Made by a program: the position numbers and the translations under genes. From assembly GCA_017506865.1 (NCBI GenBank), contig JAFCMP010000004.1:62001-126000 (forward strand): a DNA stretch of 64,000 nucleotides, written 5' to 3'. This document shows, piece after piece, positions 3,171 through 57,300 of this stretch. Origin of the DNA: Tribonema minus (taxonomy: Eukaryota > Sar > Xanthophyceae > Tribonematales > Tribonemataceae). The stretch's first letter is position 1, and every line of letters starts with the position of its first letter. The notes under the pieces were generated by a model. It was not told where the DNA came from. It ran no database searches and saw nothing but the letters and a program-made list of their open reading frames with translations.

Positions 3171-3244
3171 ATTAGTCGTGCTTGAGCAGCTCAGAGGCTG
3201 ATATGGCTGCTCCTCAATGTTGTCGATGCAGAACGCAACAGGCG
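3171..3244. repeat. Decayed copy of the 3' end of the bicupin gene
   Basis: This segment repeats, with substitutions and small gaps, the last coding bases and stop region of the adjacent gene (3256-3334), displaced by about 85 bp in the same orientation. The shared core is TAGTCGTGCTTGAGCAGCTC. It lies just beyond the stop codon, so it would fall in the 3' UTR or flank. Confidence 0.7.
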
Positions 3245-3256
3245 TATTAGCGCTTA

Positions 3257-5509
3257 CTAGTCGTGCTTGAGCAGCTCAATGACCAGGGCTTGATACGGTT
3301 GGTCCCCAATGTTGGTGACGGAAAACTCCACAGGACCCTCAACCCACATATCACCTCCATAGCGCTGCAGCGCTTTGTCGAGGAATGGGCTGTTCTCGCC
3401 CTCCGTGGTCAGCTTGCCATCGCTGACGCTCAGTACAACTGCGAAAAACTGCCACCTGCAAGATGAAGAGAATCAAGAAAGGCAATTGAAATGTGAGTGA
3501 TTATGTGTGCAGTGGTCGCCTGACCCTAACCATTACCCTATTCAATCCTAACCCTAGCTATGCGCTACATGCATACCACGGACAGAAATCCTGTGATCTG
3601 TGCAAACTGCATGTACTGGACGTAGGCTCCATGGGTGTGACAGTGTCATGGTGTGTGACCGTGGCAGAAAAAAGGTGCAGCATGAGCCGTGGTGAACATG
3701 ATGGTTGATACGCCTTTGATTTATGCCAGCAATCACGGGTTGGACGGCACTGCAACGATTCTGAGTAGTTGCATCTTCTGCCACTGGCCATGATACGTTG
3801 ATCATCATTAAAGTGCATGTTTCATCAAACCTGGCGCTTGGTGTTCTGCAGGTGGCAGAGCAGCGCAGGCGCTGGTTGAAGAACTAAGCTAACTGACCCC
3901 ACTACAGCAAACTGAACGGGCACCCGCTGAGGTTACTTCAATATTGCCAATATTCAATCATTCATTTCAAAAGGCCCTTATATCTTGTTGCAAGACAAAT
4001 TGTACGAGTCGTCTGCCCACTTGCAGCTCTTCAGTGGCCATCCTGAAAGTTGACACCATTGCGGAACACTGGTACGCAATGCGCATCAACCACTTGAAAG
4101 GCTGCACTGGACGTCATCAGCCACCGCTTACGCTAGGTCCTTAAATTGTTTACCTGAGGCGAACGTGCAGCATACTTCAAAATACCTGCAAACAACAGTT
4201 TGGTTATTGAGAAGTCTGTTGCGACACCAGCAGGCTTAACAGCAAGGACTGCTCACATACCAGTTCGCAATACAATGACAGTACTAGCATGTCACCTAAC
4301 TCTGCCAAGACAGGGTACATGATGACTGACTGCGGAGACCTTCAGTCGCAATGCAACAGGTTGATGTAGATGAGGGTCATACGATGCCACTACTAGCATG
4401 GCATAGGTGTTGATGTAAAGAGAGTACATACATGATGACTCATTGCAGAGAGTTCACGTCACAATGCAGCAGTTTCAAATACTTGATGTCATTGTGCTGC
4501 CCAAGTGCAAGAGTTCACCTGTGAATGCCAGTAGACTCCCCTGGCCCTATCTCCAAGTGGTACACACGCGCAGTCCCCTCACGACTGTACTTAGTGTCAA
4601 GAGTGTAGGCAGGGTGCTTCAGTGGCTCCCCGCCATCAATGGGCGGCGATTTGAGGAATTCGAGCGCAAAGAAGTCGCTGCGGTGCGGAAACGATTCCGC
4701 CAGCGTCACCTGTGGCAAGAGAGGTTTGTGCCATGGGAGGTAAAAGAGGCTGGGTAAGAACCAGGCAGGGACCCAAACAATGCATGAAGCTGGTTGCGAG
4801 TGTCTGGTAATTACTGCTAGTCAGGTCCCAGCGCAAGCTGGTGAGGACTGGGATGAAGGTCGAGCTGAATTGAGGTTGAGCTCAAATAGGCGCAAGCACC
4901 ACATGATGGTCCACATCATATCAAATGCACACGTACACTTGCAACACGTGGTATGGCTGTCTACCCTAATGACAGACAGCGAACACACAAGAGGCGTACT
5001 TGATCGATGCTGCGGTGGTGGTAAGCCAAACATATTTTGCTCCACAAAGGTGTCACATACTCAACAGCCAAATCACAGTGAGAATGCTGTCAGCGAAATG
5101 GCGTGAATTTGTGTCTGCCCACAAAGAGTTATTTGCGTAGAGGTCGATGAAGTGTTTTTGTAAAACGAGCTCCGAAGATGTGCACCAACAGCCTCACCTG
5201 ATGCACCATAGGGCCCTCCGTCTTGTTCAAATTCCACCACTGTGATCCTTTCTTAATGTCTTGGTCAAATTCCTTTCCCTCTGCCGTCTTAGCCTTGCAA
5301 GGGCCATCGGTCAGCGCCCTGTAGAATGTATCCTCCGTATGCTTGTGCATTTCGCAAGGCCGGCCTGGTACCAGCTTGACTCGATAGCTGTATACCCATG
5401 AGTTCGAGAACTGCTTGACGTGCATCGGCTCAGCGTGCACATTCTGCTCCGTGCTGCGGGCTGCCTTGGAGCTGCCGACATTGCCATTGAGTCCGATGCT
5501 GTCGGTCAT
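3257..5509 (-). CDS. Two-cupin (bicupin) protein, RmlC-like fold
   Basis: Three exons on the minus strand (5509-5198, 4709-4519, 3455-3257) join in phase to give about 233 residues. The first junction falls after the codon for GPMVHQ; the second makes an Arg codon joining GESTGIH to WQFFAVVLS. Two cupin half-domains can be read. The first, residues about 40-104, has PGRPCEMHKHTEDTFYRAL, with the His-x-His of a metal-binding cupin. The second, residues about 150-233, has ARVYHLEIGPGESTGIHRW and later VEGPVEFSVTNIGDQPYQ, and keeps only one His, so it probably binds no metal. No signal peptide is apparent. The substrate is unknown, since cupins range from dioxygenases to isomerases and storage proteins. 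A possible extra exon at about 4157-4188 was left out because it breaks the frame. Confidence 0.75.
4282..4475. repeat. Degenerate tandem duplication, period about 109 bp
   Basis: Two imperfect copies begin with TACTAGCATG at 4282 and 4391 and share ACATGATGACT and CAATGCA blocks. They lie in intron 2 of the bicupin gene. No clear match to an exon edge was seen here. Confidence 0.5.
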
Positions 5510-6079: not shown

Positions 6080-8794
6080 TTAGCAACCTGCTGCACATGC
6101 CTCTTTCACTGATGACTCCAGAGATGGCGAAGCCGCCGCCGCTGCGCTGTCACTGTAATACCTCTTCAACCAGTCCAACGCAACCCCATTGGTCCACCCG
6201 AACCCTACTTGCGGCTCATACTCCCCCCCCTTGCCAACTCCCCCCGTGCGCTGCCCATCCAGCTTCTCATGCATGAAGCCCGTTTCTGCCCACGCCTGAT
6301 GCGCCGAGCGCAGCCACTCAAGCGCGAGCTTATCTGCCAGCTCCTTACCCCCGACAGTGGCCCTGAGACCCTCGACTATGAGCCACTGCAAGGGGGGCCA
6401 GCTGACCGGCATGTCCCACTGCTGCCCAGATGCCACCAGGCTGGTCATCATCACGCCCCCGCCGCCGTCGAGCAGCCCGCTGCTGAGCAATGCCGCAACC
6501 GTGGCCTCGCGTCGAAAGACTTCGCCAGCCCACAGCGGCACGAAGCACGCAGCCGTCACGTGTTCGGACTGCGTGCAGCCTACGAACGCAGTGGTGCGGG
6601 TGCTTGCATCATCGGCGGCGGGGGGCAGCACCAGGTCCCTCCACAGACTGGCAGTTTCGTCCCACATGAGGTTGAGCATCGCTGCTGCCCGCGCTTCGGC
6701 AGCGGTGCCGTATGTTGTGCCGTCATCCGGACTGCCCAGCAGGGTGCAGAAGTGTGCCAAGTTCGTCTCGTACCTGCAGCAGGGTGAGGCACGCGAAGTG
6801 GTGAACTGCGCCGCCGATCGCAAGTAGGGAGACACAGCAGAAGTACGCTTCGAGAAATTGACAGAAGCACTTTTGCGCATGTGCAGGCGCAGACGTATAC
6901 ATACCCTGAGCACTGCTGCACCATCGCAACCAGGATGGATGCAGTACAAGTATGACAAACGAAGCAAAAAGATCGCTGAGCTCTATTGCATACTGCGTCG
7001 TGAGCGTGAATGAAAATACCTTAAACGAGGAGCTGCTCCTAATACTGCGCAACAGGAGTCAACGCCTGCAATCAGCATACAGGCAGCGATTGGCATTATG
7101 CAAAACTTGGGGCATTTGAGAGAGCGGTAATACCTGTGAAAGACGCGCTGAAGCAAATGGGTTTCATTAATGCAAATCAGCTGCATACATACTACCAGCT
7201 TTGACTACATCATTGACCAAGGGGTGCAGTTCTGGTGTCAAGTAAGCAAGAGCAGGTGCAGTGCTGTGTTGGCTTGCTTTTAAGAGCCAACTGCATGCAA
7301 TGCCCTTTTCTGCATGGTCAATTACGCAAGAAAGGTGCAGTGCTGTGTTGGCTTGCTTTCAAGAGCCGACTGCATGCGATGTCCTCTTCTGCATGGTTAT
7401 ATGAGTCACAAAGCTGAGTGTTGAGGAGAGGTGTGGTAAGCACAATGTGCCTCAGGTGCACCGAACTGAAAGAGCCAACGGCGGGCAGTTGACAACAGAG
7501 CAGTCGGCAACTTCAATTGGCCAGTGCAGCAATGAAGAAGTTCAAGCTTGTCCAGTACCTACATGATCTCAATCGCTTCAAAAGCAGCATGCGCCGCACA
7601 AACGACTACACGCATGGGTGATTGTCAAGGTATGTTTTGAGGGGTTGGACAACATGCCACTGCGGATGCCGCACGACGCTTGACCGACATGTCACTGCAA
7701 GTACTATATGCGTCCACTCACCTGTAGAGGAAGGCATTCAGGCCCACGGGCACGATACGCGTGATCTGCGTATCTCTCAACTGTCCCACGTGCGCTGCTG
7801 CCGCATCGCCACCCCCATCGCCACCGCCGCCACCACCATCACCCGTGCCGTCGCTGCTACTGCCCTTCAACCACCACCGCGAGCTGAAGTCCCAACCGCT
7901 CTCCGCTGCCGCTGTGAGCTCCGCCAATACGCCGCTGTCGCCAGCGCTCGTGGCGAGGTCTTCTCGGTACGACTCCGGTCGTGGGCGCGCTGCGGCGGCG
8001 TCGCACCAGTAGCGGTTGAGCACATGGCCTGCTATGGTGACGCTGCGCTGCAGCATCCAGAACCTGTACTCCTGCTCCAAGACCGGCAATGCCTCCTGGA
8101 GAAACGCTAGTCCGTTCTCCTGCTGCCCCGTGGTCGTTCCCTCGGCGGTTGTGGCAGTTACGAGGTCGAGGACCATGTCGCTCAGGAGCGGGGGCTGCGT
8201 GCGCTGCGTGTAGTACAAGCGGCCGCCATTTGGCACGTGGCCGAATGTTTTGACATCGTCCAGGAGGTTCTGCACTACGCCCTGCGCTGTCTGTGCCATG
8301 CCGCTGACCAACAGCCCCTTGCAGATCCAGTAGGAGTCCCAGTAATAGCTCTCCCTGAACCGCCCTCCTGGGACAACTACCGCATTTGCACGGTGCAGCA
8401 GTGAATGCCTCTGCGGATTGGCCTTCACATCAGGACTGACTTGCCGCGTTAACCCCGGCCAGAGGGCGTGCAACGCTGCAGCCCAGCGCGCCATGTCCGG
8501 CTGCCGTATCGTTGTTATGAATGGTAAATCTACGACAAAATCTGTAGGACTGTGAGGCAGCAAGTCAGCGCCCACATCATCGAAGTGCGTAGCTACAAAT
8601 GCTGTGAGGGCTTGCACGCTTGTTTTGTCGTCCTCTGCCAGCTGTGAGAACGCTTTCAGGATGTGTTCTGGGTCTGCCTTGGCAGGCATGTCGACGAAGG
8701 TCTTGCTGTCCTTGAAGACGCCCATGGCCTGCACGGCATGCAGCAATGGCCCTTCGCAGAACAGCGAGGCAGCACCACTGGATACAGCTGCCAT
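6080..8794 (-). CDS. Trehalase, glycoside hydrolase family 37
   Basis: The enzyme hydrolyses alpha,alpha-trehalose to two glucoses. Two exons (8794-7722 and 6773-6080) join in phase at an Arg codon (FLY-R-YETNL) to give 588 residues, normal for the family. The first GH37 signature is PGGRFRESYYWDSYW at about residues 142-156. The second region reads QWDMPVSWPPLQW (about 476-488), a variant of the usual QWDxPNGWPP. The glycine-rich lid reads KGGEYEPQVGFGWTNGVAL (about 539-557). By family knowledge the catalytic acid is the Asp of ESGWDFSSRW (about residue 302) and the base is the Glu of GGEYEPQ (about 542); both are present. A Gly/Asp-rich insert follows at about 311-330. No signal peptide is obvious, which suggests a cytosolic neutral trehalase. 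Confidence 0.93.
7245..7405. repeat. Tandem duplication, period 81 bp, in trehalase intron
   Basis: Two copies about 90% alike start with GCAAGA at 7245 and 7326 and share GGTGCAGTGCTGTGTTGGCT. They lie in the single trehalase intron. No similarity to trehalase exon edges was noticed, so this duplication seems purely intronic. Confidence 0.85.
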
Positions 8795-11031: not shown

Positions 11032-11577
11032 GGCGCCGCGCTCTGTGTCTGAATATATAGTCAAGGCTCTCTCTTGCCCTCGCTGATATCCTCTTCTACT
11101 GCCGCCTCGCTGTACTGTCGCGCTTTAGTCAAATCTGACACATCGAAGTCCGTCCCGGACTAGCTTCCTGAACCACCTTGCGTTGGGTAAGGCAGCTGAG
11201 CACTGTCCGCCGTAACTGCTGGCCCTGGCACTTGTCGTCAGCTGCGCCTGTGTTTGCACCTCTACTCTGGTGGACTAACGATCCTGGGGCCTTGCCATGC
11301 AGCGCTCCACAAAAGTTGTGATGCCTTCACTTTCGCAGAGAACAGGAAGATGCCACCAAGATCTGAGGGTTAGGGTTAGGGTTAGGCTAAGTTGGCAGCA
11401 CTGTGCGCTCCGCTCAAGATGTGAAAATTCATTTGACTTCGCATCGCCCAGCAATGTGTCGGTGCAAACGGCAAAGCCTGGTTGTCCGTGTCACAATGCA
11501 TTGGCGCAGGCAGTACTGCAGCACAGCAGGACATGAGCTTTGGCACGGTCATGTACATATACGCATGTGCCTACATA
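11032..11577. other. Spacer with telomere-like repeat
   Basis: This lies between the LHC-like gene start and the end of the PPR-like gene. It contains a three-copy GGGTTA run (11367-11386). No gene is supportable here. Confidence 0.5.
11367..11386. repeat. Interstitial telomere-like (TTAGGG) run
   Basis: There are just over three head-to-tail GGGTTA units in the spacer. Similar short runs recur across the window in both orientations. Confidence 0.9.
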
Positions 11578-18990: not shown

Positions 18991-21900
18991 ATGGAAGCTG
19001 AGACGCATGGCAAGACAGGCGTGGTGAATGACGAAGTCATCAACGAGGTGCACCCCCCAGTTGGTGTGTCGTCTCTCGACTACAAGGCTCTGTACGAAAG
19101 GAGCTTGGCGGATAGCGATGGATTTTGGAGCGAGCAGGCTCGCAGCCTGTTGACCTGGTTCAGCGACTTCCAGAACGTGCAACAGGGCTCTTTTGAGACC
19201 GGGGACATTGCATGGTTCACGGCCGGCAAGGTGCGCTGTGCGTGTGCTTCACGGTAACCGGTGCTTCAAATGCCGCTCTGGACTCATGTTGTGTGTTGGC
19301 GTGAATTCGCAGAGAGCCTGGACGTTCTATCAGCAGCAGAGGCAGCAGCTGGGCCGCGTGAGCAAATATTATGAATTGCGTGCGCCTACACCGCCGCAGT
19401 GCATAGCTAGAACCGCCATCGCTAAATACCGGCGATCCTTGAAGCGTCGGCCATGCTAGAGCTCGGCAATGGACTGCGGATCTCGCTGCACATTAAAGGC
19501 TTTGCTGAATCATTGCAGCATCGCCGAGCTGCTGCCCATCATGCTGGTGTCTGTGCTCCATCATAAGGGAAATAAACCCTAGCGGTGCCTTGGCACGCTC
19601 ACACTTGTCCAGGCAGGCGGCGCGCTCTGCGCTCACTGAGCGTCTTCACATCCCTGCTCTACGATGCTCCAGTAAAAATTGCATTGCAATTTATGTCAGC
19701 AAACATGATTTGCCTCATCTTCAATTCAATTGGTCTCATTCATTTTCACAGCAGGAATGTTGCGCGACCTGACCTGCTGCCACTGCCCTACAAAATAATC
19801 TGTTCTGCGCAGCTCAACGCCTGCTACAATGCGGTGGACAGGCACATCCCTGCGCGTGCCAACCAGGTCGCCATCATTCACGAAGCGGATGAGCCTGGGC
19901 AGTCTACAAAGATCACCTATGCGGAGCTGCTGGCGAAGGTGTGCCGGGTTGCCAACGCCATGAAGGAGATGGGCGTGCGCAAGGTATGTAGGTAGCATTA
20001 CTTCATAGTGTAAGCATAGTATAATGGTTGAATAAAACATTGAAGTAAGGTATTGCCACATAGAAGTTTGCAGCATGTGCCACATCTTTCAGTGTGTAAC
20101 TTGCATGGTCTCTGTGGAGGCATACAGCAGGTGCAGGCTTATTGCATCCGCTGCTATAACTACCACTTAGAACTATCACGAGACGAATTTGACTGTCATG
20201 ACATCTGCCACTTTAGCAAGCCATAGGTCGTCGAGATATGTTCGCTGGCGCATTTGGTGGCAGCAAACATTAGTCTAGTGAATATGCATCCTGCAACTGG
20301 TTAATGGCTCACCGAGAAAGCAATGATGCATCCCCAGGTGCAGAGTTTTTCGAGCTCTGCATACTACAGGTGGGTTCGGCTAAGCCAAGGCTACTCTAAA
20401 CTGATTGCTACGCAAAGCTCAAAGTCATAGCTCCTCGCTAGGGCTACACACCACGCAGGTGCTGCACGCACCAGCTGCTGTGCATTGCACTCAACCTTCC
20501 ATACCCGCCGCCTGTTGATTCCGGCGAAAAGAGCCAGGCATCTGCTGAGCCTCCTGTGGTTGCGCCAACCGGTTGTGGCTGCTGCGAGACACTGCAACTG
20601 CGCATTGTCAACACTCTTCTCACTCGGTGCTAAACCTTCAGCCGCATCATGCCAAAGTTCATTCTAACGTAATCTTGCAGCTGTAACAGTCGCTGAGCAC
20701 CATCTCCCTGTGCAACAAAAACCTGTTTTTCCGCTCGTGCCCCAGGGCGACTTTGTCATGCTGTACATGCCCTTCAGCCGCATGCCAAAGTATTCACACA
20801 TGCAGTCTTGCAGCTGTAACAGTCGCTGAGCACCTTCTTCCTGTGCACCACCACCCTTTTTTCCACCCATGCCCCAGGGCGACTTTGTCACGCTCTACAT
20901 GCCCATGGTCCCGGAGGCGGCCATCGCCATGCTGGCCTGCGCACGCATCGGCGCACCGCACTCCGTCGTTTTTGCGGGCTTTAGCGCGGATGCCCTCAGG
21001 GACCGCATACTCAACGCGTCCTGCAAGTTTGTGATGACTGCGGATGAGGGCAAGCGCGGTGGGAAGACGATTCCGCTCAAGAGGATTGTGGACGCGGCGT
21101 GCTCGGGGTGCCCGTGCGTAAAGACGGTGTTCGTGTTCAAAAACACATGCGGTGAGTGGCGGGGGTTGACCCCAACTTCAAATACTTCCATCAGGGGTAC
21201 GGTTGAAGTTGGGGTTAAGTTCAGGTTGAGAGTTTGTCGCGTTGGTCTTTTGAAATCAGGGCTGTTTAATTATATCATCTGCAACGGGTGTGGTTTCATA
21301 CACATGTTGAGAACAGTGGAAACAGTAGACTTGTCCCATGCGTGCTGATGGTGTTTGTGTTCAAGAACACGTGCGGTGAGTAGGGCGGGGTCAGGGGGTG
21401 CGGTTGAAGTTGGGGTTGGGTTGAGTGTAAGGGTTCATTGCTGGTCTTTACAATTAGGACTTTTTGTTGAAGGAGCATCTGCCATTGACAGATTTGGTTG
21501 CAGTCACACGTTGAGGAAAGTGACAACAGTAGCCTTGTCCTGTGGTGACGTCACCAACGGTGGGAACGTTGCTCCAATCTCCCTTGTTCGGGCCTTGCAT
21601 GGGTACATGATATGTGTGCTAGCTGGGCGCTGGGACGTGTTGGCGCAGCTGCAAAAGCTGTAAGTTAAAAGATTTGAAGTTGGGGCGATGCCGTATGAGA
21701 TGCTGAAACGGTGTAGTTGCTGCGGATGAAGCAGAAGGTCTTACGGGCGCCCTAGAGTACACGCCTGTTATAAGGAACGAAGATTGAAGTGACTGAGGAT
21801 GAGGCAGATGAGCTATGAGGCACCGAAGAATAAACGCTTTACTCAGGGAAGGAGTGTCAAAGTTAAAGTGTCAAAGGCGCCGTAGAATAAACGGTTTCTT

Positions 21901-24900
21901 CAAGGAAGGAGTCTGAACACCTTGAAGCACTCGTCATTACATTGATCACGTCTGTTCTTCATAGTAATACACTCAAATGCACTCACTTGCATAGTCTGAT
22001 GTGCTGTGTCTGACCTGTTGTGACCTACAGCGGACGTGCCTTTTGCTGCCACGAGAGACGTGTGGATGAGTGAGCTCCTGCCCAACATGAGGCCGTACTG
22101 CCCTTGCGAAGCCATGGACAGTGAGGACACCCTGTTCATCCTATACACCTCTGGATCAACAGGACAGCCTAAGGGGTTGGCGCACACCACCGCTGGCTAC
22201 CTCCTCCACACGGTGCGTCTCCACGCTCAGCAGCATATTTATCAGTGGTGTCAGCAGTCCCGAATGCACCAGATGTCAGTATGTATGTATTTGTCGAAGT
22301 ATGTGGCAGCGTTTGCATGCATGTCAAGCATCACACAATCAAGGGGGTTCGGCAGAGCATACACTATCGCGTTGGTATACTTGGATAGCAAAGGTGAACC
22401 ATGTTTGCTTGCCCGTTTTCTTCTTGTATGAGTGCTTGAGCATCTCTTGTAAACACAACACGCGCGGCAGCCACTCTCACAGGCTCGCTTCGCCTGCTGT
22501 CTTGTATGGCATCTAAATGAGTTGAACCCCCTTAAACATGCGAGGAAGGGCAAATTCCAAATATGTATATGCTGAAGGACAGCTGTTGCTACGCTTGCAA
22601 CTGCCTCATTGCCAGGCCCAAAGTACTGTCTGTTCCCTTAATTCTCACTATTTCCTTCTGCGCCTTGATCCGCTTGTTCATACATGCATACCCTTGTTTG
22701 ACTCCACAGGCCCTCACGACCAAGCACGTGTTTGACCTGAAGGAGGGAGACGTGTACGCCTGCGTGGCAGATGTGGGCTGGATCACAGGGCACTCGTACA
22801 TTGTCTATGGGCCACTGATCAACGGCACCACCAGCCTCATGTTTGAGAGTACACCGCTGTACCCGGACCACGGCCGCTACTGGGATCTGGTGCAGGTGGG
22901 TAGTATGTAGGTAGTCTATGAGTTGGTCACAGTACCTGCAACCACAGTGCTCAGCGTACACTGCTCTACCCGGGCACGGGTGCCGAGACCTGGCATGTAG
23001 GCATGGTGGTGTGGTAAACTACGTGCTGTCTTTGAAACTGCCTCAACAGTACAAGATCACCGAAAACAGCAAAGTGGCATCACGTTTCATGACTCCATGG
23101 GGGTGGCAACGGCGCCACGCCGCACAGCTGCCTCACATCTCCTTGCAGCCAGCCGCACTACTCCCTGTACACGTCTGGCATCTGGGGTCAATGTCGCCGT
23201 CCAATAGCCGTTTGCAGTGCCTACTACAACTATGACGTCGCCGTGGACGCACAGCACGATGTGGCGCATGATTTCATGAGCGAGCGGCAGTACTTGGCGC
23301 ACGCCTTCTCTCTTCTGAAGGAGCAGCAGCTGTACGGCGTCACCGCGTCATCTGTGGCTATTGGCTATTGGCTATTGGACACAGATGGCCCTGAAGGATG
23401 TTTAGGACGTCTGCCATGAGCGGGAAGAAGAGAGAGGCGTGCGCAGAGTCTGCCGCTCGCTCATGAAGCCATGCGCCACATCGTGATGTGCGTCACAGCG
23501 GCGTAATAGTTATAATAGGCACTGCACACAGCGTCTGTGCCCGGCACTGCGACATCCCGATCTACGCACAACAGTGCATTGTGCATGGAGGCAGCAGCCT
23601 CGTGCTGGCGAATGCAGGCGCGGTTGAAGGGGGCGGCCAATCCTTAGCCGCGCTTCTCCAGCTCAGCCGCCTACATGGTGGGGCACAGGGCAGCACCTAG
23701 CCGTTAATCAGCACGGTTAACACTGCATGCGCATACATGATATGACAATTTGGTGTGAAAGTATTGTTGCGTACACAGTCCTGGGCGCATTTTTCAGACA
23801 TTGTGTCCACTGGTTTAGGTGTCTCGCATGGAGGAGCATTGTCACATGTGTACACATGCAATCACCTACTGCGCACAGGCCTGACGCATACGTGCAAACA
23901 ACCTTGACCGGTGGGAGTGTGCAGTGCAGCAGCTGCTGAGTAGAGTGCGCTGTGGCCATAATGACAGGACAGTAGTATTTCCTGTATACTGTCCATGGTC
24001 TGTCACCTTCCATTTTCCTGTTGATAAGCAGTGGCTGGGTTCGTCCATGCAGTACCTCAAGTTGAAGTGCGCATGCCATCGTGATTGCGTTGACAACATA
24101 GTCTATACGTGCGCTTTGCATGCTGCGTCATTGCATACATTCTGCAATGCTCCTGATAAGCTCAGGGACCATGACCATCAACTCTGCGCTTGCATGTGCC
24201 GTCTAACCCGCTCCGCACCCACCCAATGCAAACCCTTAGGGCCAGGCTACCTACCCCCAATCCCAAGCGTAATCCTAACCCTAACGCTGCCACAACGCTC
24301 CGCAGACGCACAAGGTGAACCAGTTCTACACAGCGCCCACGGCCATCCGTGCTCTCATGCGGTTCGGCCCGGAGATAACGGAGAAGTACGACCTGTCATC
24401 GCTGCGCGTACTGGGTACGGTGGGGGAGCCCATCAACCCTGAGGCGTGGCGCTGGTACAACGAGCACGTGGGCAAGGGGAAGTGCAGCATTGTGGACACG
24501 TGGTGGCAGACGGAGACAGGGGGGCACCTCATGACGCCGCTGCCTGGCATCACGCCCATGAAGGTGAGGTCTGAGGTTGAAGTTAAGTTGAAGAGTTCAG
24601 GCCTTGGGGGCACCTCATGACGCCACTGCCGGGCATCACGTCCATGAATGTGTGTGAGTATGCTGGTGCCTTTGCTTGAATTATGAAGGTGGACATGTCA
24701 CATGGCTCCCGTCCATGGAAGTCGGGCATAACGCCCATGAAGGTGTGTGGGGGGGGTACGGGGTGCCTTGGGGTGAAGTACCGGAGGCTGAAGTTGAAGC
24801 GAACATTTCAGATGGATCCCGCTCATGAAAGCCGGCGGTGTGGTGCACGTCACATGTCGCCTGAGGGTAGAGAGCCATGAATCGTGACTCTCTGCAGATT

Positions 24901-37000: not shown

Positions 37001-37525
37001 GGCGGCGCAGCGACCGCATGGCCGCAGACCTTGGTTATGTTACTATCCTCAACTTCAAACCCTGACCCCCCCAATGCCACTGCCACATTCGCATACTAAG
37101 CAATGAATCCTAACCTCCCCTCCTCACCCTGACCCAAACCCTAAACACACACGCAGGTCAGCCCCATGGTGCAGGCCTACCTGCGCACCGCGGACAGCAC
37201 GGCGGGACGCCGCAGCGAGCGCATGGCGCGCACGGTGCCGGTGCGCTGGTGCGACACAGGCGGCGCTGACACCTTCAGGCGCTTTGCCAGTCGCCGCGAG
37301 CAGCACGAGGCACTGGCGGCGCAGCGTGACAGCGCTCGGCGAGAGTTTGAAGCGGGGTCGCGGGATGGAGAGTTGAAGTTGAGGGAGGCGTTGAGGGGGG
37401 TGGAGAGGGAGCGGCGGAAGTGTATGGGGGGGGGGGCGAAGCAGATGGCGCTGGCGAGTATGGCCATTGCGGCGGAGCAGCAGCAGCGCGTGGCGCGGGC
37501 GCGCACGCGTGCGCAGAGGGCGTGA
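31007..37525 (+). CDS. FAM227-like protein (FWWh domain)
   Basis: Exons: 31007-31221, 31319-32162, a short uncertain exon ending at 32914 (perhaps from about 32861), 33291-33743, 34246-34423, 35409-35560, 36032-36400 and 37157-37525. All other junctions keep phase. The FWWh core appears as SQRIFVYMFWLAHCKFFQED, then QQEHLLRLISDLYVE, FRDLFFLYYPYAVANAIIWG and YGIVFKRILYLDS. Near the C-terminus FDTSQVSPMVQAYLRTA fits the family's conserved SPLVQ-type block. The N-terminal half is Ala/Thr/Gly-rich with a poly-Gly/Ser tract encoded at about 31995-32090. The C-terminus is a basic helix (EQQQRVARARTRAQRA). FAM227 proteins are poorly characterised and occur mainly in ciliated eukaryotes. A conserved-looking ORF at about 35823-35960 was not included. 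Confidence 0.75.
33045..33325. repeat. Triplicated acceptor and start of FAM227-like exon 4
   Basis: The real exon begins GCCAACCTGGAGCGCTACCT at 33291. An upstream copy begins GCCAACTTGGAGCGCTACCT at 33158 after CCCCCAG, and a more decayed one at 33045 (CGCAG|GCAACC). The preceding GCGCTCAATCAATGCCG and C-runs repeat too. Periods are about 113 and 133 bp. Confidence 0.9.
34018..34075. repeat. Decayed copy of the end of FAM227-like exon 4
   Basis: GTGCTCAGCAGGAGCACATG, then CCCCGTCAGCAACATGCGTG and TTGTGG, mirrors the exon end GCGCGCAGCAGGAGCACCTG, then GCTCATCAGCGACCTGTATG and TTGAGG|T. It lies about 325 bp into the same intron. Confidence 0.7.
34440..34675. repeat. Scattered CCCTAA/TTAGGG units in FAM227-like intron 5
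   Basis: Short CCCTAA units (34462-34505) and GGGTTA units (about 34636-34670) face opposite ways within one intron, with a GACTCAGCCTCAGACTCAGA patch between them. Confidence 0.7.
36355..37240. repeat. FAM227-like intron 7 built of copies of both flanking exon edges
   Basis: The upstream exon end (CATCAGCAGCGAGTGCCGTT, then GACACGTCTCAG|GT) recurs at 36467-36538 (CATCAGCAGCGCGTGCCAGC, then TGACACATCTTAG|GT) and weakly at 36585-36645, each followed by an ACTTCAAC-like motif. The downstream exon start (CAG|GTCAGCCCCATGGTGCAGG, real AG at 37155-37156) is preceded by copies starting at 36678, 36854 (with an internal gap) and 36952. These reproduce about 80 bp of exon, for example GCAGGCCTACCTGCGCACTG and GACAGCACGGCGG. 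Every copy is on the same strand. Confidence 0.95.
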
Positions 37526-38698: not shown

Positions 38699-38803
38699 AA
38701 ATCTTCTCGACCCAGTGGCACACGAGCCACATGATGTGCCTTGCGGTGCTCACGTCTTCTTGACAAGTGGTACATAGGCTACATCCATGAGGTGCCTTGT
38801 GGT
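38699..38803. repeat. Decayed copy of the methyltransferase 3' end, period about 53 bp
   Basis: The coding end and stop region (38752-38803; CGTCTTCTTGACAAGTGGTA, then CATAGGCTACATCCATGAGG) is repeated immediately beyond the stop (38699-38751; ATCTTCTCGACCCAGTGGCA, then CACGAGCCACATGATG). The stop codon sits at the junction of the two copies. Confidence 0.8.
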
Positions 38804-41800: not shown

Positions 41801-42341
41801 GTGTTCTATGGCAAGAGTTCATAGATTATCCTCAGTGGTGCCTTGTGAGGAATCGAGTGAAAGTAACTGACTGCCCGCGTTCAGGTGAGGTGAAATGCTT
41901 GCAGCACAGTGCAATACCATTCGTTGGACGGAAAGCAATGAGCGCGAGGCTGAAGCGGTACTCACTCCAGAGATTGTCGACCAACTCCTTATTGGTGTTC
42001 CCACTGCACCGCCAGGGCCCTGCAAGATGCAGGGCAAGAGAGGCAATCGCTTGAAACTGGTGAAAACATGAATGACATCACTCAATGTCAGCAGGTCCTG
42101 TAAGATGCAAGGACAGGAGCGGCAATCGGTTGAAACTGGTAGAAACATTAATGACATCACTCAATGTCAACAGGCCCAGCAGCCCCCGGCAGCTGTGTCC
42201 ACGACAGAACCACGGTCAACTCAAGTATGAGGAAGACATGCGCTAAAGATGTGTGGGCACGGCAATGCCGAAGTTTGGATCTGCATGTGTCGATCGCTCG
42301 GCTTCAGGCACCCCCTCCCGCAGGCGATGCTTACCTTTCAT
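38750..42341 (-). CDS. PCMT: Protein-L-isoaspartate O-methyltransferase
   Basis: Five coding exons (42341-42335, 42019-41966, 41125-40895, 39972-39749, 38902-38750) join in frame to 222 residues, the usual length. The enzyme uses AdoMet to methylate L-isoaspartyl residues and so repairs aged proteins in the cytosol. The sequence follows the family from end to end: CSGNTNKELVDNLWKSGIIK, MPQPIGHAQTISAPHMHAAA, KVLDIGVGSGYLAAV (AdoMet motif I), TGKVWGIDYLAPLV, FDAIHVGAAAETIPPKLV, LKLGGRMFIPVGPYGG and LMDVAYVPLVKK. The first coding exon is only ATGAAAG, and the GGG codon it starts is completed by exon 2. The gene is head to head with a calcineurin-B-like gene. Confidence 0.95.
42017..42174. repeat. 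Tandem duplication including methyltransferase exon 2 acceptor, period 78 bp
   Basis: Two copies about 85% alike share TTGAAACTGGT, AATGACATCACTCAATGTCA and the minus-strand acceptor TGCATCTT(G/A)CAG|G. The copy nearer the exon is the working site; the farther one keeps an AG acceptor. Confidence 0.9.
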
Positions 42342-45886: not shown

Positions 45887-45927
<41 letters not shown>

Positions 45928-50012: not shown

Positions 50013-50120
50013 GTGTGCGTGCGCGCGTGTGTGTTGCCGTATGTGTGTGTTGTGTGTGTGTGGTGTGGTGGTGGTGGTGGTGGTGTGGTGTGGGGGGGGG
50101 GGGTGAGGGGGAGTGGGGGA
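50013..50120. repeat. GT/GGT/G-rich simple repeat
   Basis: TG dinucleotides grade into TGG and then a G-run of about 14 and GGGGGAGTGGGGG. The strand asymmetry could allow Z-DNA or G-quadruplex formation. Confidence 0.9.
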
Positions 50121-50690
50121 TAGTATGCGCATGCGTGGGTGACAGTATCACCAGTATCACCATGGCTGAAACTACAACAAAACGCTCACGTATAGGTGCC
50201 GCTACTGTTCCTAGTGCCAGGCTTGACCTCTTCACTGGGGCTTGGCGTGAATGCAGGGGCAGCAGCAGTGCTCAATCCCGCGTCACAGACTCCCATCGCA
50301 TGCGCACACGCATACAGCAGTGCGCTGCTAGGTAGGCAGGTATGAACCTCGATGCAGCTGGCGCGCCGCTAGCCCCCGCTCGAAGACTAGGCCGGTGCCC
50401 TGACACCGACAAGCGCCCAGCGCAGATTCCAGCGCAGAAGTAGAGTGTGTGTGTGTAAACCCCAGGCACAGGCTCTCGCACACAGGCAATGGCAATGGCA
50501 ACGCCAGGGTCGCATACGCCGCCGCGGATGCGCAACGACGGAAGGAACTAGGTCTACTACTGCTAGGGTTTGTGGGCCAGCGCTCAGCGCAGCGCTGCGA
50601 CCTTGCTGCCGTTGCGTCGCATCGCCCTTCTCAACAACAACCCCTGGAAGCTGGGTATGGGGGCTTGACCTGACCCCCAGGGCACCTTGC

Positions 50691-50830
50691 GGTGGCAGCG
50701 ATCAGCACAGCGCCAATCGGCCTCGCGCAGCAGCGCAGCGACGCCCGACCCTACCTACATACCCCCTCCCCCCCCCCAAGGCAGCGATGTGGCAGCACTC
50801 AGCACAGCGCCATGACCTCGCGCAGCAGCG
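50691..50830. repeat. Decayed copy of the CCT gene 3' end, period about 85 bp
   Basis: The stop-codon region of the CCT gene (GGCAGCACTCAGCACAGCGC, then CATGACCTCGCGCAGCAGCG) is repeated just beyond the gene end at about 50691-50742 (GGCAGCGATCAGCACAGCGC, then CAATCGGCCTCGCGCAGCAG). A fainter version may lie near 50575-50620. Confidence 0.8.
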
Positions 50831-53147
50831 CCTCGTCGTCCTTCTTGACAAAGCGCCCCTTGACGCGCATGCGCGTGTCGGCAAAGTTCTTGCGCACGTC
50901 GTACTTGACCGTCTTGGTCCAGATGCGGTGGTGCCGCTTCTCCATGAAGCGCTGCACGCGCCGCCGCCGCGACTCCGGCGAGTACGCCCCGACCATCCGC
51001 CCGTCGGTGTTGGCCGGCGGCGCAAACCTTCGCACCACCGGTTTAGGGACTGTTACAGTGCGTGTAACTGCCTTGCGGGTGGTTGGGCGCGTGGCGGCCA
51101 CAGGTGTGGCGTGCGGTGGCGAGGGGGTAGGGGGCTCTGTGTCTAGGGTAGGTATCATGCCGAGGTGCTGGTCGCCCAGGGCGCGGAGGTCGTCGCCTAG
51201 GCCGTGGGCCAGCTCTAGCGTGAGGTCATCTGTTGAGAAGCACAGCAGGAGGCAAGCATGTGTGATGAGGTTCAGAGCTTCTGAACACTAGCGTGAGGTC
51301 ATCTGTTGATAAGGCACAGCACAGGCGAGTATGTCTCATAAGATTCAGAGCTGCTGGACACGTGTGATGGCGACTCGTGAGGGTCTGTCAAACAACATTT
51401 TGACACAAGGTATGTACCCTTTGAAGGCGCGTGACAGGGGACCCACTCACGACTCTACTCGCAGGTGGCACACGTCCAGTGGCTGCAACAAGCAAGCGCC
51501 GCTGCACAAAACAGTCAGTTGAGCACCACTTGTTGTGCCGAGAGTTGCAACTGCTGTAAGTGCTGCACCTCCATACTCTATTGCAAATGTAAACCTACAA
51601 CAGGGAGCCCAGTTCTGAAAATGCGGCCAGAATGACTACAGGGCTGCAATCAGTAAGAGGTCATAGCACTTCCCCTGCTTTACATGAGGTCTGTACTGCC
51701 TCCACAAACCAAAACGCTCAGTAAGTGGGGGGTCAGCCTCACCTGTGAACGAGAAGTGAAACTGCGGACTGAACCCCATTTCTTCCCCCCCACCCCCCTG
51801 CTCATCCCCCTCTGCACCCTCTACATCCGGATCCTGCTCCGTATCGCCAGCCAGGTGCTTTGAAGAGGCTATGGGAAGGGGGCCAACGGCACGGGCTACG
51901 CGCACACGCGAGCGAGTGGTCATGCGGATGGTGCTGGCAGGGTCGGATGGCGGTGAGGCAATGTTGTAGTTGTTGTTGAAGTTGCAGGAGGCATCGCTCG
52001 GCGTGTCCTGGGGGCGGCGCGCTGCGCTCTCAGCCTGCACAGTGGCACATGTTTGGGTGTTATCAAGTCAGTCACTGGATGTGTGTGGCGCAGTTGCGGT
52101 AAAGAAGCGTGGTGACTTATTTAGGTCAGAGCTGCCAATGTGTTGTGCAGAGAGGAACAATCCGTCGATTGCGCGCACGCCTTTGCTGTGCGTGCATGTG
52201 CGATGACAGTTGAAGTACTCTCTGTGACTACTGCCAGCCTGCTTCCACCAAGAGCTACACTCTCGGAGCTAACGCACCCGCAGCACCACAAAGTTGCGCC
52301 ACCGTCAACAATCTGACAACAGATGCAGTCAACCAACAAACTCGTACAAATACGTGCATGTAGCCCCAGCATACGCCGTGAGACCACAGCACTACAACAG
52401 TGAGCCACACACAACGCACGAGAAAACAGCGTGCCATACCTCATCAGCGCTCATCCCGTGCGTGTGAGCGCTGCTGCTGTCACCATCGTACGCCCCGCTC
52501 CCGCTCGCGTCCGCGCGGCCACCATAGTCATGGTGGTCATCATCCTCCCCAAACGCGACGCCAAAACTCATGTTCTCTAGACCCCCCAGCTGCTCCTCCA
52601 GGCCCGCGCCGAGAAACGTTCCCGCCAGGCTGCTGTTGCTCGCTGTGCCCAGGCTGCCAACGAGCAGCGCTGCCTCGTTGAGACTGCGACGGGCGCCGCC
52701 GCCGCCGCTGCTGCCGCCGCCGCCGCCGCTGCTGTCGGCGACGCTGCTGCTCCTGCTGCCGCGGCCTGCCGCGAGGAAGGCGTTGGCGACTGCCATGGCG
52801 GTGTCTGCGTCATCTTGAAACAGCGCGTCGCCGGCGGTATCGTCAAAGTCGTTGAGGCTCACGGATAGGAACCCTAGGTCTAGGTCTTGCAGGAGGTCTA
52901 GGGAGCCGCGGCGGTTGAGGAGGCCGCGCTGCATGAGGGCCACGAGGTGCGACGAGTCGCCGCTGTCGTAGCAGTCCAGTGCGGTTTGCAACGCCGCATC
53001 GCCGCTGATGATGAGGTTTTTGAGGATGCCCTTCTGGCTCTTGTCGATGAGGCCCCTCTCCTCCAAGTCGGAGGCACTTTTGTGAGCATGGCAGGAGCGA
53101 GGATGACAAGCAGCGTGTACGGTGGTGTTTAGGCATTTGGCCGGCAA
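50799..53147 (-). CDS. CCT-domain transcriptional regulator
   Basis: Three exons (53147-52440, 52034-51743, 51229-50799) join in phase, giving about 476 residues. The C-terminus carries a CCT (CONSTANS, CO-like, TOC1) motif: RRRRVQRFMEKRHHRIWTKT, then VKYDVRKNFADTRMRVKGRF and VKKDD. In plants and green algae CCT proteins act in light, clock and flowering or starch control through NF-Y partners. There is no B-box or response-regulator domain. The N-terminus reads LEERGLIDKSQKGILKNLII, then SGDAALQTALDCYDSGD, a helical segment found in some plant CCT proteins. The middle is Ser/Gly-rich and acidic. The start ATG at 53147 is tentative, as a short upstream exon could replace its first 23 residues. 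Confidence 0.85.
51211..51360. repeat. Duplicated acceptor and start of CCT gene last exon, period about 75 bp
   Basis: The real exon edge on the minus strand is CTCAACAG|ATGACCTCACGCTAG. In plus orientation, TAGCGTGAGGTCATCTGTTG at 51216-51235 recurs exactly at about 51291-51310. The intron sequence after it also recurs (AGCACAGC, ATGAGGTTCAGAGCTTCTG versus ATAAGATTCAGAGCTGCTG). Confidence 0.95.
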
Positions 53148-54311
53148 ATCATGGAGTTTGAGTGTGCTGGACAGAAGCGCTAACCGCAGCAGCTACAGGC
53201 ACGAAAAGGAGCCGAGATCATGTGTCAGCGTTCAAGGTGCAGATGACCCGGAACCGCCATGCTGCTGGCGACGCCGACAATGCCAGCAACATTAGTGTTG
53301 CGTGCTGGTGGAGACGGTACATCAACTAGTGTAGCGTTACGCATGCATCACAATGCAAAGCACCTCCGAGTGCTTCGCAGTGTAAAGAATTCTTTCTGGC
53401 CAGCAGCGTCAACATTGCACCACATGCAGCACACCATCCATGCGATCCATACCTGCGAAGCCGTCCGGATATAGAGCCTGCTCTTGCCCTTTTCATGTGG
53501 CTGACTTCCCAGCTACTGGGGGTGAACATCGGGGGCGAGTGCTGCGAGAGCACGGCGGCTTGCGCAGCGGAGTCTTGGACAAGGACACCCTTCAGGAAAG
53601 GGTCTGTCGGGCAGTCGTGATCACCGCCTGTGGTCGTCATTTTATGGCGCATCCCGGCGTAGCTTCGTGCTGCAACAGCTGTAGCAGCTCCCGAGTGTAT
53701 CGCTGAAGAATGGCGCTGGCTGGGTCACCGAGTTGGTACACCTTGTCCGCTACTACAGGTTGTTCGCTGCGGTCGACCAGCAGGCGCAGATGCCGATGGA
53801 ATGGAGATGTCGCCGCGAATAAAGCGAGTGCACCGGCGGCGGCGTCCTGACAGCCTCTGGAGCAAAGGATCCTGCAGAGTGTAAAAACCCGTGGCTTCGC
53901 CGCTGCCGTTCTGGAAGTGGCTGGCGTTGATGCGTTGTCTCAGTGGCAAGTGTGAATATTTCCAGCACTTCTTGCCTTGCTCGTCTGTCGCTCTGTGCTG
54001 CAGGACGCTTGCTTGCAATGACGCTGCAAAGCTCTGAAGTATGCAATTGAGTCGAGACGGACTTCTTCACTAGGGAGGGGGATTTTGAGTTCCGGGGGTT
54101 TGTTATCAGCGACGCGCGGATGTCCTTGCCGCCGATCGCGGGTTCAGCGCTGTAGCTACGTCTCCCAGACCTTGCAGCTGGTGGGTTGTCTGGCCTGGAG
54201 CGAGCGAGCTGGATCGCGCTACATCGTTGTACAAGATTCCTTCAGATGCACAACTGTTGATCCAGCTTTCGGCACAGCTCTCACAGCGTCGTGTTGGTAA
54301 CCCGGACGAGC
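53148..54311. promoter_or_regulatory. Spacer with upstream regions of CCT and CLPTM1 genes
   Basis: This lies between two divergent gene starts but is interrupted by an unrecognised minus-strand exon (53637-53939). Promoters must lie at its two ends; no specific elements were identified. Confidence 0.4.
53637..53939 (-). CDS. Unrecognised exon or small gene without an in-frame start
   Basis: An open frame of 100 codons ends in TGA (53637-53639) and has no ATG, so it must be spliced if real. Its amino-acid pattern looks genuinely coding: FHRHLRLLVDRSEQPVVADK, then VYQLGDPASAILQRYTRELL and QLLQHEATPGCAIK. An acceptor is possible at TCTGCAG|GATCC (about 53870) or at the CGCCAG just downstream of the TGA that bounds the frame. 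A possible first exon starts at an ATG at 54070 (MKKSVSTQLHTSELCSVIAS), about 240 bp from the CLPTM1 start. I do not recognise the family. Confidence 0.45.
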   Translation of the reverse strand, partial: DNASTPATSRTAAAKPRVFTLCRILCSRGCQDAAAGALALFAATSPFHRHLRLLVDRSEQPVVADKVYQLGDPASAILQRYTRELLQLLQHEATPGCAIK

Positions 54312-57300
54312 ATGGAGCCTCAGGAGGAGGATGCCGGGGCGAGAAACAACCTGGAGGCAGTGGCGGCGGCACAAGGCGAGCAGCAGCGGCACCCACATCT
54401 GCTGGCTCCCGTCGAAGGCCAGCAGCAGCAACAGCAGCAGCGGCCGAGCTTATGGGAGACAATATTGAAGTCTGCTCTGCTGTATATAGCATTCAGCCTC
54501 TTCACACGCCACCATATGGCCAAGTCAGTGGCCCAGCAGCGGGCACAGATGGAAGCCGTGGACCCCGATGCTCTCGCAGAGCAGGCGCTCGCCCCTCTTT
54601 CAGTGGAGGAGGTCGATGTCTCGCCTCTCAAGGAGTTCTTTGGCGTACAATCCAAGCGACTGCCGCAGTTCCCGGAGTATGATGCGAGGGGGAGGCCGCT
54701 GCCGCTGCAGCGCTGCACTTTCAAGCCTGGTCAGGTGAGGGTGTCAATTCAATCACGCATTAGTGACACGTTGCAGAGCAGCAACGCAGCATTGTATCAC
54801 AGTGACTTCCAGCTGCCTCATAATCTAGATGACGAAAAACAAGAAACACCGAGTGGATGACACGTTTGTTGCTGATGTGTTGGTGATGTTGGCATCTGCT
54901 TTTGTCGCTTTGTGTATGCTTTCCTGCTGCTCAAGAGTGCCGCAAAGTATGTAGCGGAATACGCCAACAGCTGCCAGATTTGCAGCCACAGCTAATAGCA
55001 CCGCTGCCTTTGATTGCATGACCATGCCGGTTGTGATGGTGTCTCTGTGTTACTAGCAGGGACCTTTGGCCCCCCACCTCAGTGTATACAAACAAACACA
55101 GCATCATGACGCATGACGTCATGCCATGTTGTTGTCCACATCCACTGCCAGGTGATGGACCTATACGTATACAAACAAGAGGGCGCCAACGGCACAGCCG
55201 CCGCCTCACACAAAGACGCACTCGCTTCAGGCGAGCTCCTGTGGCTGGAGAAGGGCCTGACCTTTGACTGGCAGCCCAGCAATACCCGCCAAAAGGACGC
55301 AACCATCCCCCTATCACCAACGCTCGCCAACAACGGCTCCGCATGGGCCCACATATTCCTCACCAAAGCGGGCGTGAGCCCGGACCCGCGGCACCCCACG
55401 CACCGCCCCCCGGATGTGACGCACGTTGTGCATCAGCTAAACACGTATCGGCCTCTGCCGAAGGCGCGCAAGGCGCGGAACTTGCTGGCCAAGGGGGGGA
55501 AGGGGGGTGGGGTGGAGGAGGAGCAGGGGGAGGGGGAGCGGCGGGAGGGCGAAATAGGCAACTTCTGGAAGCCTACGCTGGCGATACAGCTGGTGGACAT
55601 GACGGCCGACTTTCAGCGCAACCACATTCCGGCCGTGTTTGCGGAGGATATTAAGTTCCACGCCGCGACCGGCAACTACTACCCCATCGTCGTCGTCAAT
55701 GAGTTCTGGCTGCAGACGAAGCACTACACGGCGCTCAACGCGACCGCGCCCGCAGCAGCGCTCGCCATGAGCTACCGCCCCGTGGGCCTCGGCAAGTGGC
55801 AGATCATGAGCCAGCTGGCGCGGCAGTGGCGCACGCGCGCGCGCATGGGGCTGCAGAGCGAGAGCGAAACCGACTCGATTGTGGACATGCTGGGGGACAC
55901 GTCGCCGTGGCTGCTGGTGCTGACGTTCCTCATCTCCGCACTGCACTCCATCTTTGACTTTCTCGCGTTCAAGAGCGACGTCAGCTTCTGGCGCAAGCGG
56001 CGCTCGCTGGAGGGCCTGAGCGTGCGCTCCATGGTAGTCAACTGCTTCTTCCAGATAGTCATCACGCTGTACCTGTTTGACAACGAGACGTCCTACCTGA
56101 TTCTTGTCAGCAGTGCGGTGGGGCTGGCCATTGAGCTGTGGAAGGTGAGCTTCTGGCGCTGCATGCGCGCTCTAACCCGAGAGCTAGGGTTTGTCAGGCG
56201 AAGGCTCAGCGCATGACGGGGACTGTGGATGATGTGAATTAGTTGTGAAGAGAGAGATGCCAGAGCGTGCCTTGTCATGGCAGTTTGCCAGCCAACCTCG
56301 AAGTCAGTGAGCAGACTTCAAGTCAATGATTTGGCATACACACGTTGGCACCCCTTCCTCCGCACCCTTCAACACACGCGCAGCTGTCTCACATCGCACA
56401 CCGTCCCCAATCTACCGCCATCGCTACGCTATTGTTGCTGCAGCTTGGGAAGGCGTTCTCTGCCAAGTGCGAGTGGGCCCCTGGGCGCCTCTTGCCGAGC
56501 ATCACCATGACCGCGTCAGCCAGCTACGCCAAGTCGGAGACGCGGCGGCACGACGAAACTGCCACTTCTCACCTCCTGTTTGTTGTGGTGCCGCTGGTGG
56601 TGGGGTACACTGCGTACAGCCTGGTGCAGCGGGAGCACAGGGGGTGGTACAGCTGGGTGCTCAACAGCCTCACGGGGTTTGTATGTGAGTGCTCCTGCTG
56701 TGACTCTGACTCTGACTTGACCTGTTGCCACCTGAATCGAGCTACCAGAGCAGGGTGCTCAAGAGCCTCATGGCTTCGTATATGAGTGGTCCTGCTACAA
56801 CTCTGACTCTGACTTTGAACTGTCGCCTAGTAACCCTATACAGGCTTGAGGGCTGGTATGTATCTGAGCGTGCTTGCGGTGACCCCGACTCTGACTCTGA
56901 CTCTAGCTGCCATCACGGCGCTGCTGGTTGGCGCCACTTTTGCAGCAGTTTGTTGCATACTACGCATGTAGAGGAACATTGACCGTGGCAGTGTGTTGAA
57001 TGAGCGTGTTGAGTGGATGTCGTGAAGCAGATACATGGCATCACATTGGGACAGGCCTTTCACGATGAGTTTTGAACTCCATGCTTGTGGAGCAAATATG
57101 TGTCTAACAGCATTCTTATGTGATACTCGTAGGTGCATCATAGTTGATGCAGCATCAGAGGGTGGCATTGCTGAGTTTTGGGCGTCTTCTTTCAGCAGCA
57201 ATAATGGCATTTACCAGTACAAACTAACCTTCACATCCGGCAATCAGACTTACATTTCTTGCTGTGCTGTTCCTCCGCTGCTTCTCATGTGCTGCTGTGC

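What the first reader, a model, noticed from the sequence alone, without database searches (positions are those of the whole stretch)
3171..56905. Decayed tandem copies of exon edges fill introns and 3' flanks of six genes
At about a dozen exon boundaries or gene ends (bicupin, acetyl-CoA synthetase, FAM227-like, methyltransferase, CCT, CLPTM1) the neighbouring intron or flank contains same-strand, partly decayed copies of the exon edge together with its splice site and adjacent intron. Periods run from about 50 to 225 bp. The working copy is the one continuous with the open exon. Many copies keep GT or AG. This suggests a continuing process (replication slippage or unequal exchange) that duplicates exon-intron borders, lengthens introns and supplies decoy or alternative splice sites. 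I know of no standard annotation category for it.
Basis: seen in the sequence. Interest (0 to 1): 0.9.

Follow-up and report, generated by a model that had tools for sequence, protein, structure and literature searches.

The report
Tandem duplications at exon edges
In this stretch of a eukaryotic (probably green-algal) genome, short pieces of DNA have repeatedly been copied next to themselves, often across the edge of an exon, so that worn copies of exon ends lie in introns; this looks like ordinary copying error that splicing hides, perhaps with an unproven preference for exon edges.

Summary
Same-strand repeats less than 600 bp apart far exceed inverted ones (44 v 2). Eleven arrays (offsets 73 to 224 bp, two to perhaps six copies) reach an exon border or coding end, in all six named genes. 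Exon-edge 60-mers match their own flank at 12 of 126 borders, against 0.03 expected from other flanks and 0 inverted. The main pairs are 66 to 91% identical, so they are not duplicated reads, and share no sequence between genes. Decoy copies look like unused DNA: kept splice sites near expectation, no coding-position bias, offsets in all classes mod 3. Best reading: random short tandem duplication, tolerated at borders because splicing hides the extra copy, and visible longer there because selection holds one copy. That may not explain the amount: 11 of 14 strong loci touch a border against 4 to 7 expected, but p runs from below 0.001 to 0.17 with exon set, repeat cut-off and control. A border-biased process stays open; no more of this genome was available. 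Border-crossing tandem duplication is in print (potato RdRp; human boundary repeats), so this is a dense new example, not a new category.

The parts
3167..3334 (-). T1: two copies (offset 85) of about the last 77 bp of the bicupin coding end with its stop codon; working copy 3258-3334, decayed copy in the 3' flank
   Evidence: (76%, E 3e-7)
20635..20904 (+). T4: two abutting copies (offset 136) of intron end + acceptor + 27 bp of ACS exon; working acceptor before 20878
   Evidence: (84%, E 9e-33); frame continuity
21111..21540 (+). T5: two abutting copies (offset 224) of 41 bp of ACS exon + donor + intron; working donor after 21151
   Evidence: (66% with gaps, E 1e-11)
24520..25110 (+). T6: perhaps six copies, about 86 to 123 bp apart, of the end of an ACS exon (donor after 24563), decaying into the intron; copies 4 and 6 are weak
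   Evidence: (copy 2: 91%, E 1e-11; others E 0.08 to 42)
33044..33315 (+). T7: two copies (offset 141) of intron end + acceptor + 25 bp of FAM227-like exon; working acceptor before 33291
   Evidence: 81%, E 7e-28
36360..36536 (+). T8: two copies (offset 108) of 41 bp of exon + donor; working donor after 36400; last codon of the decoy exon part is a stop
   Evidence: (78%, E 9e-8)
36640..37300 (+). T9: four copies of intron end + acceptor + exon start (my working acceptor before 37157; gene finder put it at 37175); the nearest decoy 36952-37026 still reads open, 5 differences of 75 compared, all at third codon positions, plus a gap
   Evidence: (90%, 85%)
42016..42177 (-). T10: two abutting copies (offset 78) of the acceptor region and 4 bp of an isoaspartate methyltransferase exon; working acceptor at 42019/42020
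   Evidence: (86%, E 1e-19)
50571..50851 (-). T11: three copies (offsets 99, 217) of the coding end of the CCT gene, decaying into the 3' flank
   Evidence: (81%, E 9e-8; third copy E 0.28)
51215..51361 (-). T12: two abutting copies (offset 73) of intron end + acceptor + 15 bp of CCT exon; working acceptor at 51229/51230
   Evidence: (84%, E 9e-14)
56651..56901 (+). T13: three copies (offsets 98, 179) of 34 bp of CLPTM1 exon + donor; working donor after 56684; both decoy donors have lost GT
   Evidence: (82%, E 9e-14; third copy E 0.02)
25913..26074 (+). weak pair (offset 137) near ACS donor 25957
   Evidence: E 0.99, 25 bp
33693..34069 (+). weak pair (offset 325) at FAM227-like donor 33743
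   Evidence: E 0.99, 73% of 52 bp
4316..4475 (.). tandem pair (offset 113) inside a bicupin intron, not at a border
   Evidence: E 0.007
7237..7397 (.). tandem pair (offset 80) inside a trehalase intron, not at a border
   Evidence: 89%, E 2e-22
61195..61296 (.). tandem pair (offset 62), noncoding, not at a called border
   Evidence: 90%, E 9e-8
63521..63903 (.). spaced direct pair (offset 327), not at a called border
   Evidence: 91%, E 8e-15

Best explanation
Short tandem duplication (units of about 60 to 230 bp; 1 to 5 bp of overlap where copies abut cleanly) is a frequent mutation in this genome. Those wholly inside exons are removed by selection (inferred from their rarity). Those that include one exon border, or a coding end, leave the mRNA unchanged as long as the outer site is used, so the extra exon edge drops into the intron or 3' flank and decays. 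Border arrays stay recognisable longer because one copy is held by coding selection, and existing copies can seed more. Shown: tandem structure, same strand, decay, position. Inferred: the mutational mechanism (slippage, staggered-break fill-in or unequal exchange) and that the outer sites are the ones spliced.
For: Direct v inverted pairs within 600 bp 44 v 2. Exon edges match own flank 12 of 126 v 0.03 expected, inverted 0. Over 17 aligned pairs, decoy exon parts are 86% identical (602 columns), noncoding parts 83% (704 columns), in the direction expected if only one copy drifts freely in the exon part. Differences in decoy exon parts: 36 at third, 46 at first or second codon positions (T9 recounted; without the two weak pairs at 25957 and 33743, 32 v 33; frame ambiguous for T10 and T13): no sign of coding selection. 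Offsets fall in all three classes mod 3. Tandem coverage (E<=0.01) of coding bases is 12% in the first 20 bp from a border, 0.8% at 50 to 100 bp and 0 of 8,428 bp beyond (exons scoring 10 or more). Purely noncoding arrays exist (4 of 15). In simulation an anchored copy raises detection about 1.05 to 1.5 fold.
Against: The border share exceeds what this neutral model gives. Exons scoring 5 or more: 28 to 31% predicted, 11 of 14 seen, P 1e-4 to 4e-4. Exons scoring 10 or more: 25 to 28% predicted, 10 of 14 seen, P 3e-4 to 8e-4. All 107 exons: 41% predicted, P 0.005 for 11 of 14, 0.012 for 11 of 15. By rotation, which keeps clustering, 11 of 15 has p 0.079 with all exons and 0.023 to 0.0008 at middle cuts; 10 of 15 at the strictest, 0.0035. 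So something beyond anchored neutral decay may be at work, or the window is a chosen extreme. Weak repeats inside exons also exist: 9 of 342 exon-interior 60-mer tests reach score 30, 0 reach 38.
Confidence: 0.7

Rival explanations
1. A border-directed process: breaks, nicks or polymerase stalls arise preferentially at exon-intron junctions (for example through spliceosome, R-loop or nucleosome edges) and are repaired with tandem duplication, so introns grow from their edges.
For: Excess of border loci, 1.2 to 3.2 fold, p from below 0.001 to 0.17 by exon set, cut-off and control; exon-edge 60-mers have local copies three times as often as noncoding 60-mers (12 of 126 v 36 of 1,115, Fisher p 0.002); apart from the telomere-like one, the arrays with three or more copies (T6, T9, T11, T13) all sit at borders.
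Against: With all 107 exons the p-values are 0.015 and 0.006 (14 loci), 0.096 and 0.041 (16 loci), 0.088 and 0.17 (19 loci), rotation and conditional placement, and 0.079 for 15 loci. After the 1.5-fold detection bias the 60-mer excess has p 0.02. Some arrays are far from any called border. The window was selected for the pattern, so p-values are optimistic. Units start and stop at no fixed place relative to the junction (exon part 4 to 77 bp).
Confidence: 0.17
2. The copies are kept for function: spare or alternative splice sites or alternative exons.
For: 13 of 16 decoys keep GT or AG (hand count); the nearest FAM227 decoy (36952-37026) has 5 of 5 differences at third codon positions.
Against: 13 of 16 is near the 12 expected (P 0.39); pooled codon positions show no bias (36 v 46); the T8 decoy ends in a stop, both T13 decoys lost GT; offsets are not multiples of three as a rule.
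Confidence: 0.06
3. A mobile or shared repeat family (such as Introners) inserted at borders.
For: Several unrelated genes show the same arrangement.
Against: Other flanks (borders at least 2.5 kb away) reach score 30 in 3 of 14,831 comparisons against 12 of 126 own flanks; nothing at Rfam gathering scores.
Confidence: 0.02
4. Assembly artefact (false duplication of reads).
For: None seen; short tandem copies can be mis-assembled in principle.
Against: The main pairs are 66 to 91% identical, with insertions and deletions, unlike duplicated reads.
Confidence: 0.02

Closest known systems
Tandem genomic duplication across an intron-exon boundary (potato RdRp gene, PMC4974935; passages seen, parts of the abstract among them)
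   Same: A tandem duplication crosses the boundary of an intron and the next exon and carries the acceptor signals with it
   Different: There the duplicate gave a new intron; here the copies seem simply to lie inside a lengthened intron or 3' flank and decay, at about eleven places in 64 kb
Internal tandem repeats at exon-intron boundaries of human genes in segmental duplications (De Grassi and Ciccarelli 2009, PMC2812944; outline and passages seen)
   Same: Tandem repeat units that lie on exon-intron boundaries and change intron structure
   Different: The human cases vary between paralogues and have RNA support for altered splicing; no RNA and no second genome is at hand here
[quoted passage not shown] PMC2891723, abstract and passages seen)
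   Same: Local tandem duplication of gene sequence that holds splice-like motifs
   Different: That model duplicates an exon-internal AGGT and creates an intron; here existing splice sites are duplicated and no new intron is called between the copies, except that T9 is undecided
Close direct repeats and short local duplications in eukaryote genomes (Achaz; Thomas; Messer and Arndt; recalled, not seen in any call)
   Same: Excess of nearby same-strand repeats over inverted ones
   Different: Relation to exon borders was, as I recall, not the subject

Membership tests
Short tandem duplication (local direct repeat) | Copies adjacent, same strand, far in excess of inverted pairs | tested here: met
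   44 direct v 2 inverted within 600 bp; 130 v 119 farther apart
Short tandem duplication (local direct repeat) | Copies private to the locus, no shared family | tested here: met
   3 of 14,831 edge-to-other-flank comparisons reach score 30; 12 of 126 own flanks do
Tandem genomic duplication intron gain | A new intron bounded by the two copies | tested here: not met
   In the called genes the copies lie at one border and the intron runs on; T9, T6 and T13, where the gene finder also called small low-scoring exons in decoy copies, are less sure
Minisatellite at exon-intron boundary (human ITR type) | Tandem units overlapping an exon-intron boundary | tested here: met
   11 of 14 loci at E<=1e-5 contain a called border or coding end
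Minisatellite at exon-intron boundary (human ITR type) | Unit number varies between paralogues or individuals | not testable with these tools
   no second genome or individual held
Introner or transposon-derived introns | Homologous sequence at many unrelated genes | tested here: not met
   within this window only
Duplicated alternative exon | Copy keeps reading frame and is under coding selection | tested here: inconclusive
   Pooled decoys show no coding bias; FAM227 decoy 36952-37026 has 5 of 5 differences at third positions, too few to judge

The most novel reading that the evidence does not exclude
Tandem duplication in this genome is targeted at exon-intron junctions, so that introns grow from their edges by repeated copying of the splice-site region; the arrays of three or more decaying copies are records of repeated events at the same junction.
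Probability: 0.17. Interest if true: 0.8.

Novelty: new member of a known kind. Interest (0 to 1): 0.38.

Why it matters
If general in this genome, border-crossing tandem duplication would be a main source of intron growth and of spare splice sites, and the decoys would date the events. If the border excess holds genome-wide beyond detection bias, it would point to DNA damage or repair linked to splice junctions, a testable and surprising idea. As it stands the window shows mainly that splicing can make such duplications harmless.

Tried and rejected
Gene finding: the first version drifted into hundreds of micro-exons and was discarded; (minimum exon length, stop check across junctions, score-filtered retraining) was used from then on. 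Its terminal and low-scoring exons are unsure, and it chained neighbouring genes on one strand. It also called small exons inside decoy copies of T6, T9 and T13 (listed), which I read as decoys.

Border statistics change with exon set and repeat cut-off; one search gives all 107 exons and cuts 5 and 10 for 14, 16 and 19 loci, five cuts for 15 loci. At E<=1 the count is 14 of 19 (p 0.088 by rotation, 0.17 by conditional placement with all exons), but one of these (28380-28988) is a coding repeat in an IQ-rich gene and two are weak, so I do not lean on it. Dropped: the telomere-like pair at 58154 and that region; HSPs under 20 bp, exons under 40 bp or scoring under 5, and 2 of 128 borders with flanks under 60 bp.

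Replication elsewhere: no whole genome is held; scans of viral contigs and genome contigs with a CLPTM1 exon found no relative; the cap for metagenome contigs was zero and it was not scanned. So there is no second window. Rfam (gathering scores) and ARAGORN found nothing.

In one search the T9 exon start was set two bases off; its codon-position counts were redone and the corrected totals are given. One search added the binomial values for 10 of 14.

Literature: nine searches; in the rows listed (often a small part of the hits; one search had none) I saw no report of such arrays in green algae. Most subscription papers are not held, so this is weak evidence of absence.
Full report
What the window is. 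The 64 kb hold spliced genes of a eukaryote, by gene content and style probably a green alga (inference; no name is given and no genome is held). A gene finder written for this window called 107 exons, 20.5 kb coding, many introns being several hundred bases long.

The repeats are real. Self-BLAST with E<60 gave 44 direct pairs at distance below 600 bp against 2 inverted; at 600 bp or more there are 130 direct and 119 inverted. At E<1 the near counts are 32 and 0, the far ones 30 and 21. The main near pairs are 66 to 91% identical and differ by substitutions and indels, so they are not duplicated reads. Five pairs abut with 1 to 5 bp of overlap (offsets 136, 224, 78, 73; 80), the signature of tandem duplication. 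Four border arrays have three or more copies, the outer ones weak.

Where they lie. Fourteen loci pass E<=1e-5; 11 contain a called exon border or coding end and none is wholly exonic. Four are donor-side (21151, 24563, 36400, 56684), five acceptor-side (20878, 33291, 37157, 42019, 51229) and two are coding ends (3258 and about 50806; the latter was called as a donor, but a stop codon follows in the open frame). T4 and T5 flank one exon, as do T11 and T12, so the loci are not all independent. The working copy at 20878 is supported by unbroken alignment of the joined protein to a solved acetyl-CoA synthetase across that junction.

Exon-edge 60-mers (exons of 40 bp or more scoring 5 or more) were compared with their own flank and with the flanks of borders at least 2.5 kb away. 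Own-flank scores of 30 or more occur at 12 of 126 borders; the rate in 14,831 other-flank comparisons (3 hits) predicts 0.03; inverted own matches 0. One of the 12 belongs to the FAM227 decoy that the gene finder called as an exon. Copies are therefore local and private. But noncoding 60-mers also match their own flank, in 36 of 1,115 tests, and exon-interior 60-mers their surroundings in 9 of 342 (none at score 38 or more), so local duplication is general; edges exceed noncoding three-fold (Fisher p 0.002), about two-fold after the 1.5-fold detection advantage of a selected copy estimated by simulation, with p about 0.02. The noncoding count includes the intron parts of border arrays.

Is there a border preference? 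Rotating the annotation against the arrays (which keeps clustering) gives, for 15 loci with the telomere-like one left out, 11 observed against 7.9 (all exons, p 0.079), 7.0 (p 0.023), 6.3 (p 0.006), 5.6 (p 0.0008) and, at the strictest exon cut, 10 against 5.3 (p 0.0035). In one search, with all exons, rotation and conditional placement give p 0.015 and 0.006 for 14 loci, 0.096 and 0.041 for 16, 0.088 and 0.17 for 19; with exons scoring 5 or more, 0 of 3,000 rotations and 0.0001, 0.006 and 0.001, 0.002 and 0.018. A simulation of uniform duplication, removal of exon-internal events and decay with one anchored copy predicts 28 to 31% border arrays with exons scoring 5 or more (11 of 14 seen, P 1e-4 to 4e-4), 25 to 28% with exons scoring 10 or more (10 of 14 seen, P 3e-4 to 8e-4) and 41% with all exons (P 0.005). 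Per base, tandem coverage is about 10% within 100 bp of strong borders and 2% beyond 400 bp; with all exons the slope is weak: 6 to 7% within 100 bp, 5.5% from 100 to 400, 1.8% from 400 to 800, 0 of 1,034 bp beyond. I read this as a suggestive excess that one window, chosen because it showed the pattern, cannot settle.

Do the copies do anything? In decoy exon parts differences are 36 at third and 46 at first or second codon positions (32 v 33 without the two weak pairs), identity 86% against 83% in the noncoding parts, offsets in every class mod 3. By hand count 13 of 16 decoys keep their GT or AG (7 of 7 acceptors, 6 of 9 donors), where about 12 are expected (P 0.39). The T8 decoy ends in a stop and both T13 decoys lost their donor. 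The exception worth testing is the nearest FAM227 decoy, 36952-37026, still open and with 5 of 5 differences at third positions, which may be a young or an alternative exon.

Mechanism. The anatomy is that of short tandem duplication with little shared sequence at the joint, by slippage, fill-in of staggered breaks or, once two copies exist, unequal exchange (inferred; the sequence does not tell these apart). A duplication that contains one splice site leaves the mRNA unchanged if the outer site is used, so it can be tolerated, unlike most inside an exon; at E<=0.01 coding sequence more than 100 bp from a border shows no tandem coverage (0 of 8,428 bp).

Comparison with what is known. A tandem duplication crossing an intron-exon boundary is described in a potato RdRp gene, where it gave a new intron (PMC4974935, passages seen). 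Tandem repeats at exon-intron boundaries that alter human introns are described in PMC2812944 (outline and passages seen). Tandem genomic duplication is a reviewed mechanism of intron gain (PMC3443670, passages seen; PMC2891723, abstract and passages seen). This case differs in apparent outcome, intron lengthening with mostly inert decoys, and in density. I therefore call it a new member of a known kind.

Noticed in passing
window 346-372, 3524, 11367-11390, 34632-34667, 36652-37139, 38647-38926, 58200-58314, 58772-58823: Telomere-like TTAGGG/CCCTAA runs and single units are scattered through introns and flanks: TAACCCTAA occurs 16 times in noncoding sequence against 0.06 expected; some lie inside the FAM227 arrays (T9).
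   Followed up: partly
window, e.g. 21173, 21203, 21404, 24899, 24905, 25022, 37050: The motif TTGAAGTTG (with its complement) is about 24 times over-represented in noncoding sequence (16 v 0.66 expected), several times within or beside the arrays of the acetyl-CoA synthetase introns.
   Followed up: partly
window 36952-37038: The nearest FAM227 decoy reads as an open in-frame exon and most of it (36970-37038) was called as an exon by the gene finder; it may be an alternative or newly duplicated exon.
   Followed up: partly
window 63521-63576 and 63848-63903: A 91% direct pair 327 bp apart, not adjacent copies, in a stretch without a confident gene.
   Followed up: no
window 27958-30781 (- strand): A gene that looks rich in IQ-like repeats (by eye, not searched); its coding repeats gave a weak local-repeat hit (28380-28988).
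   Followed up: no
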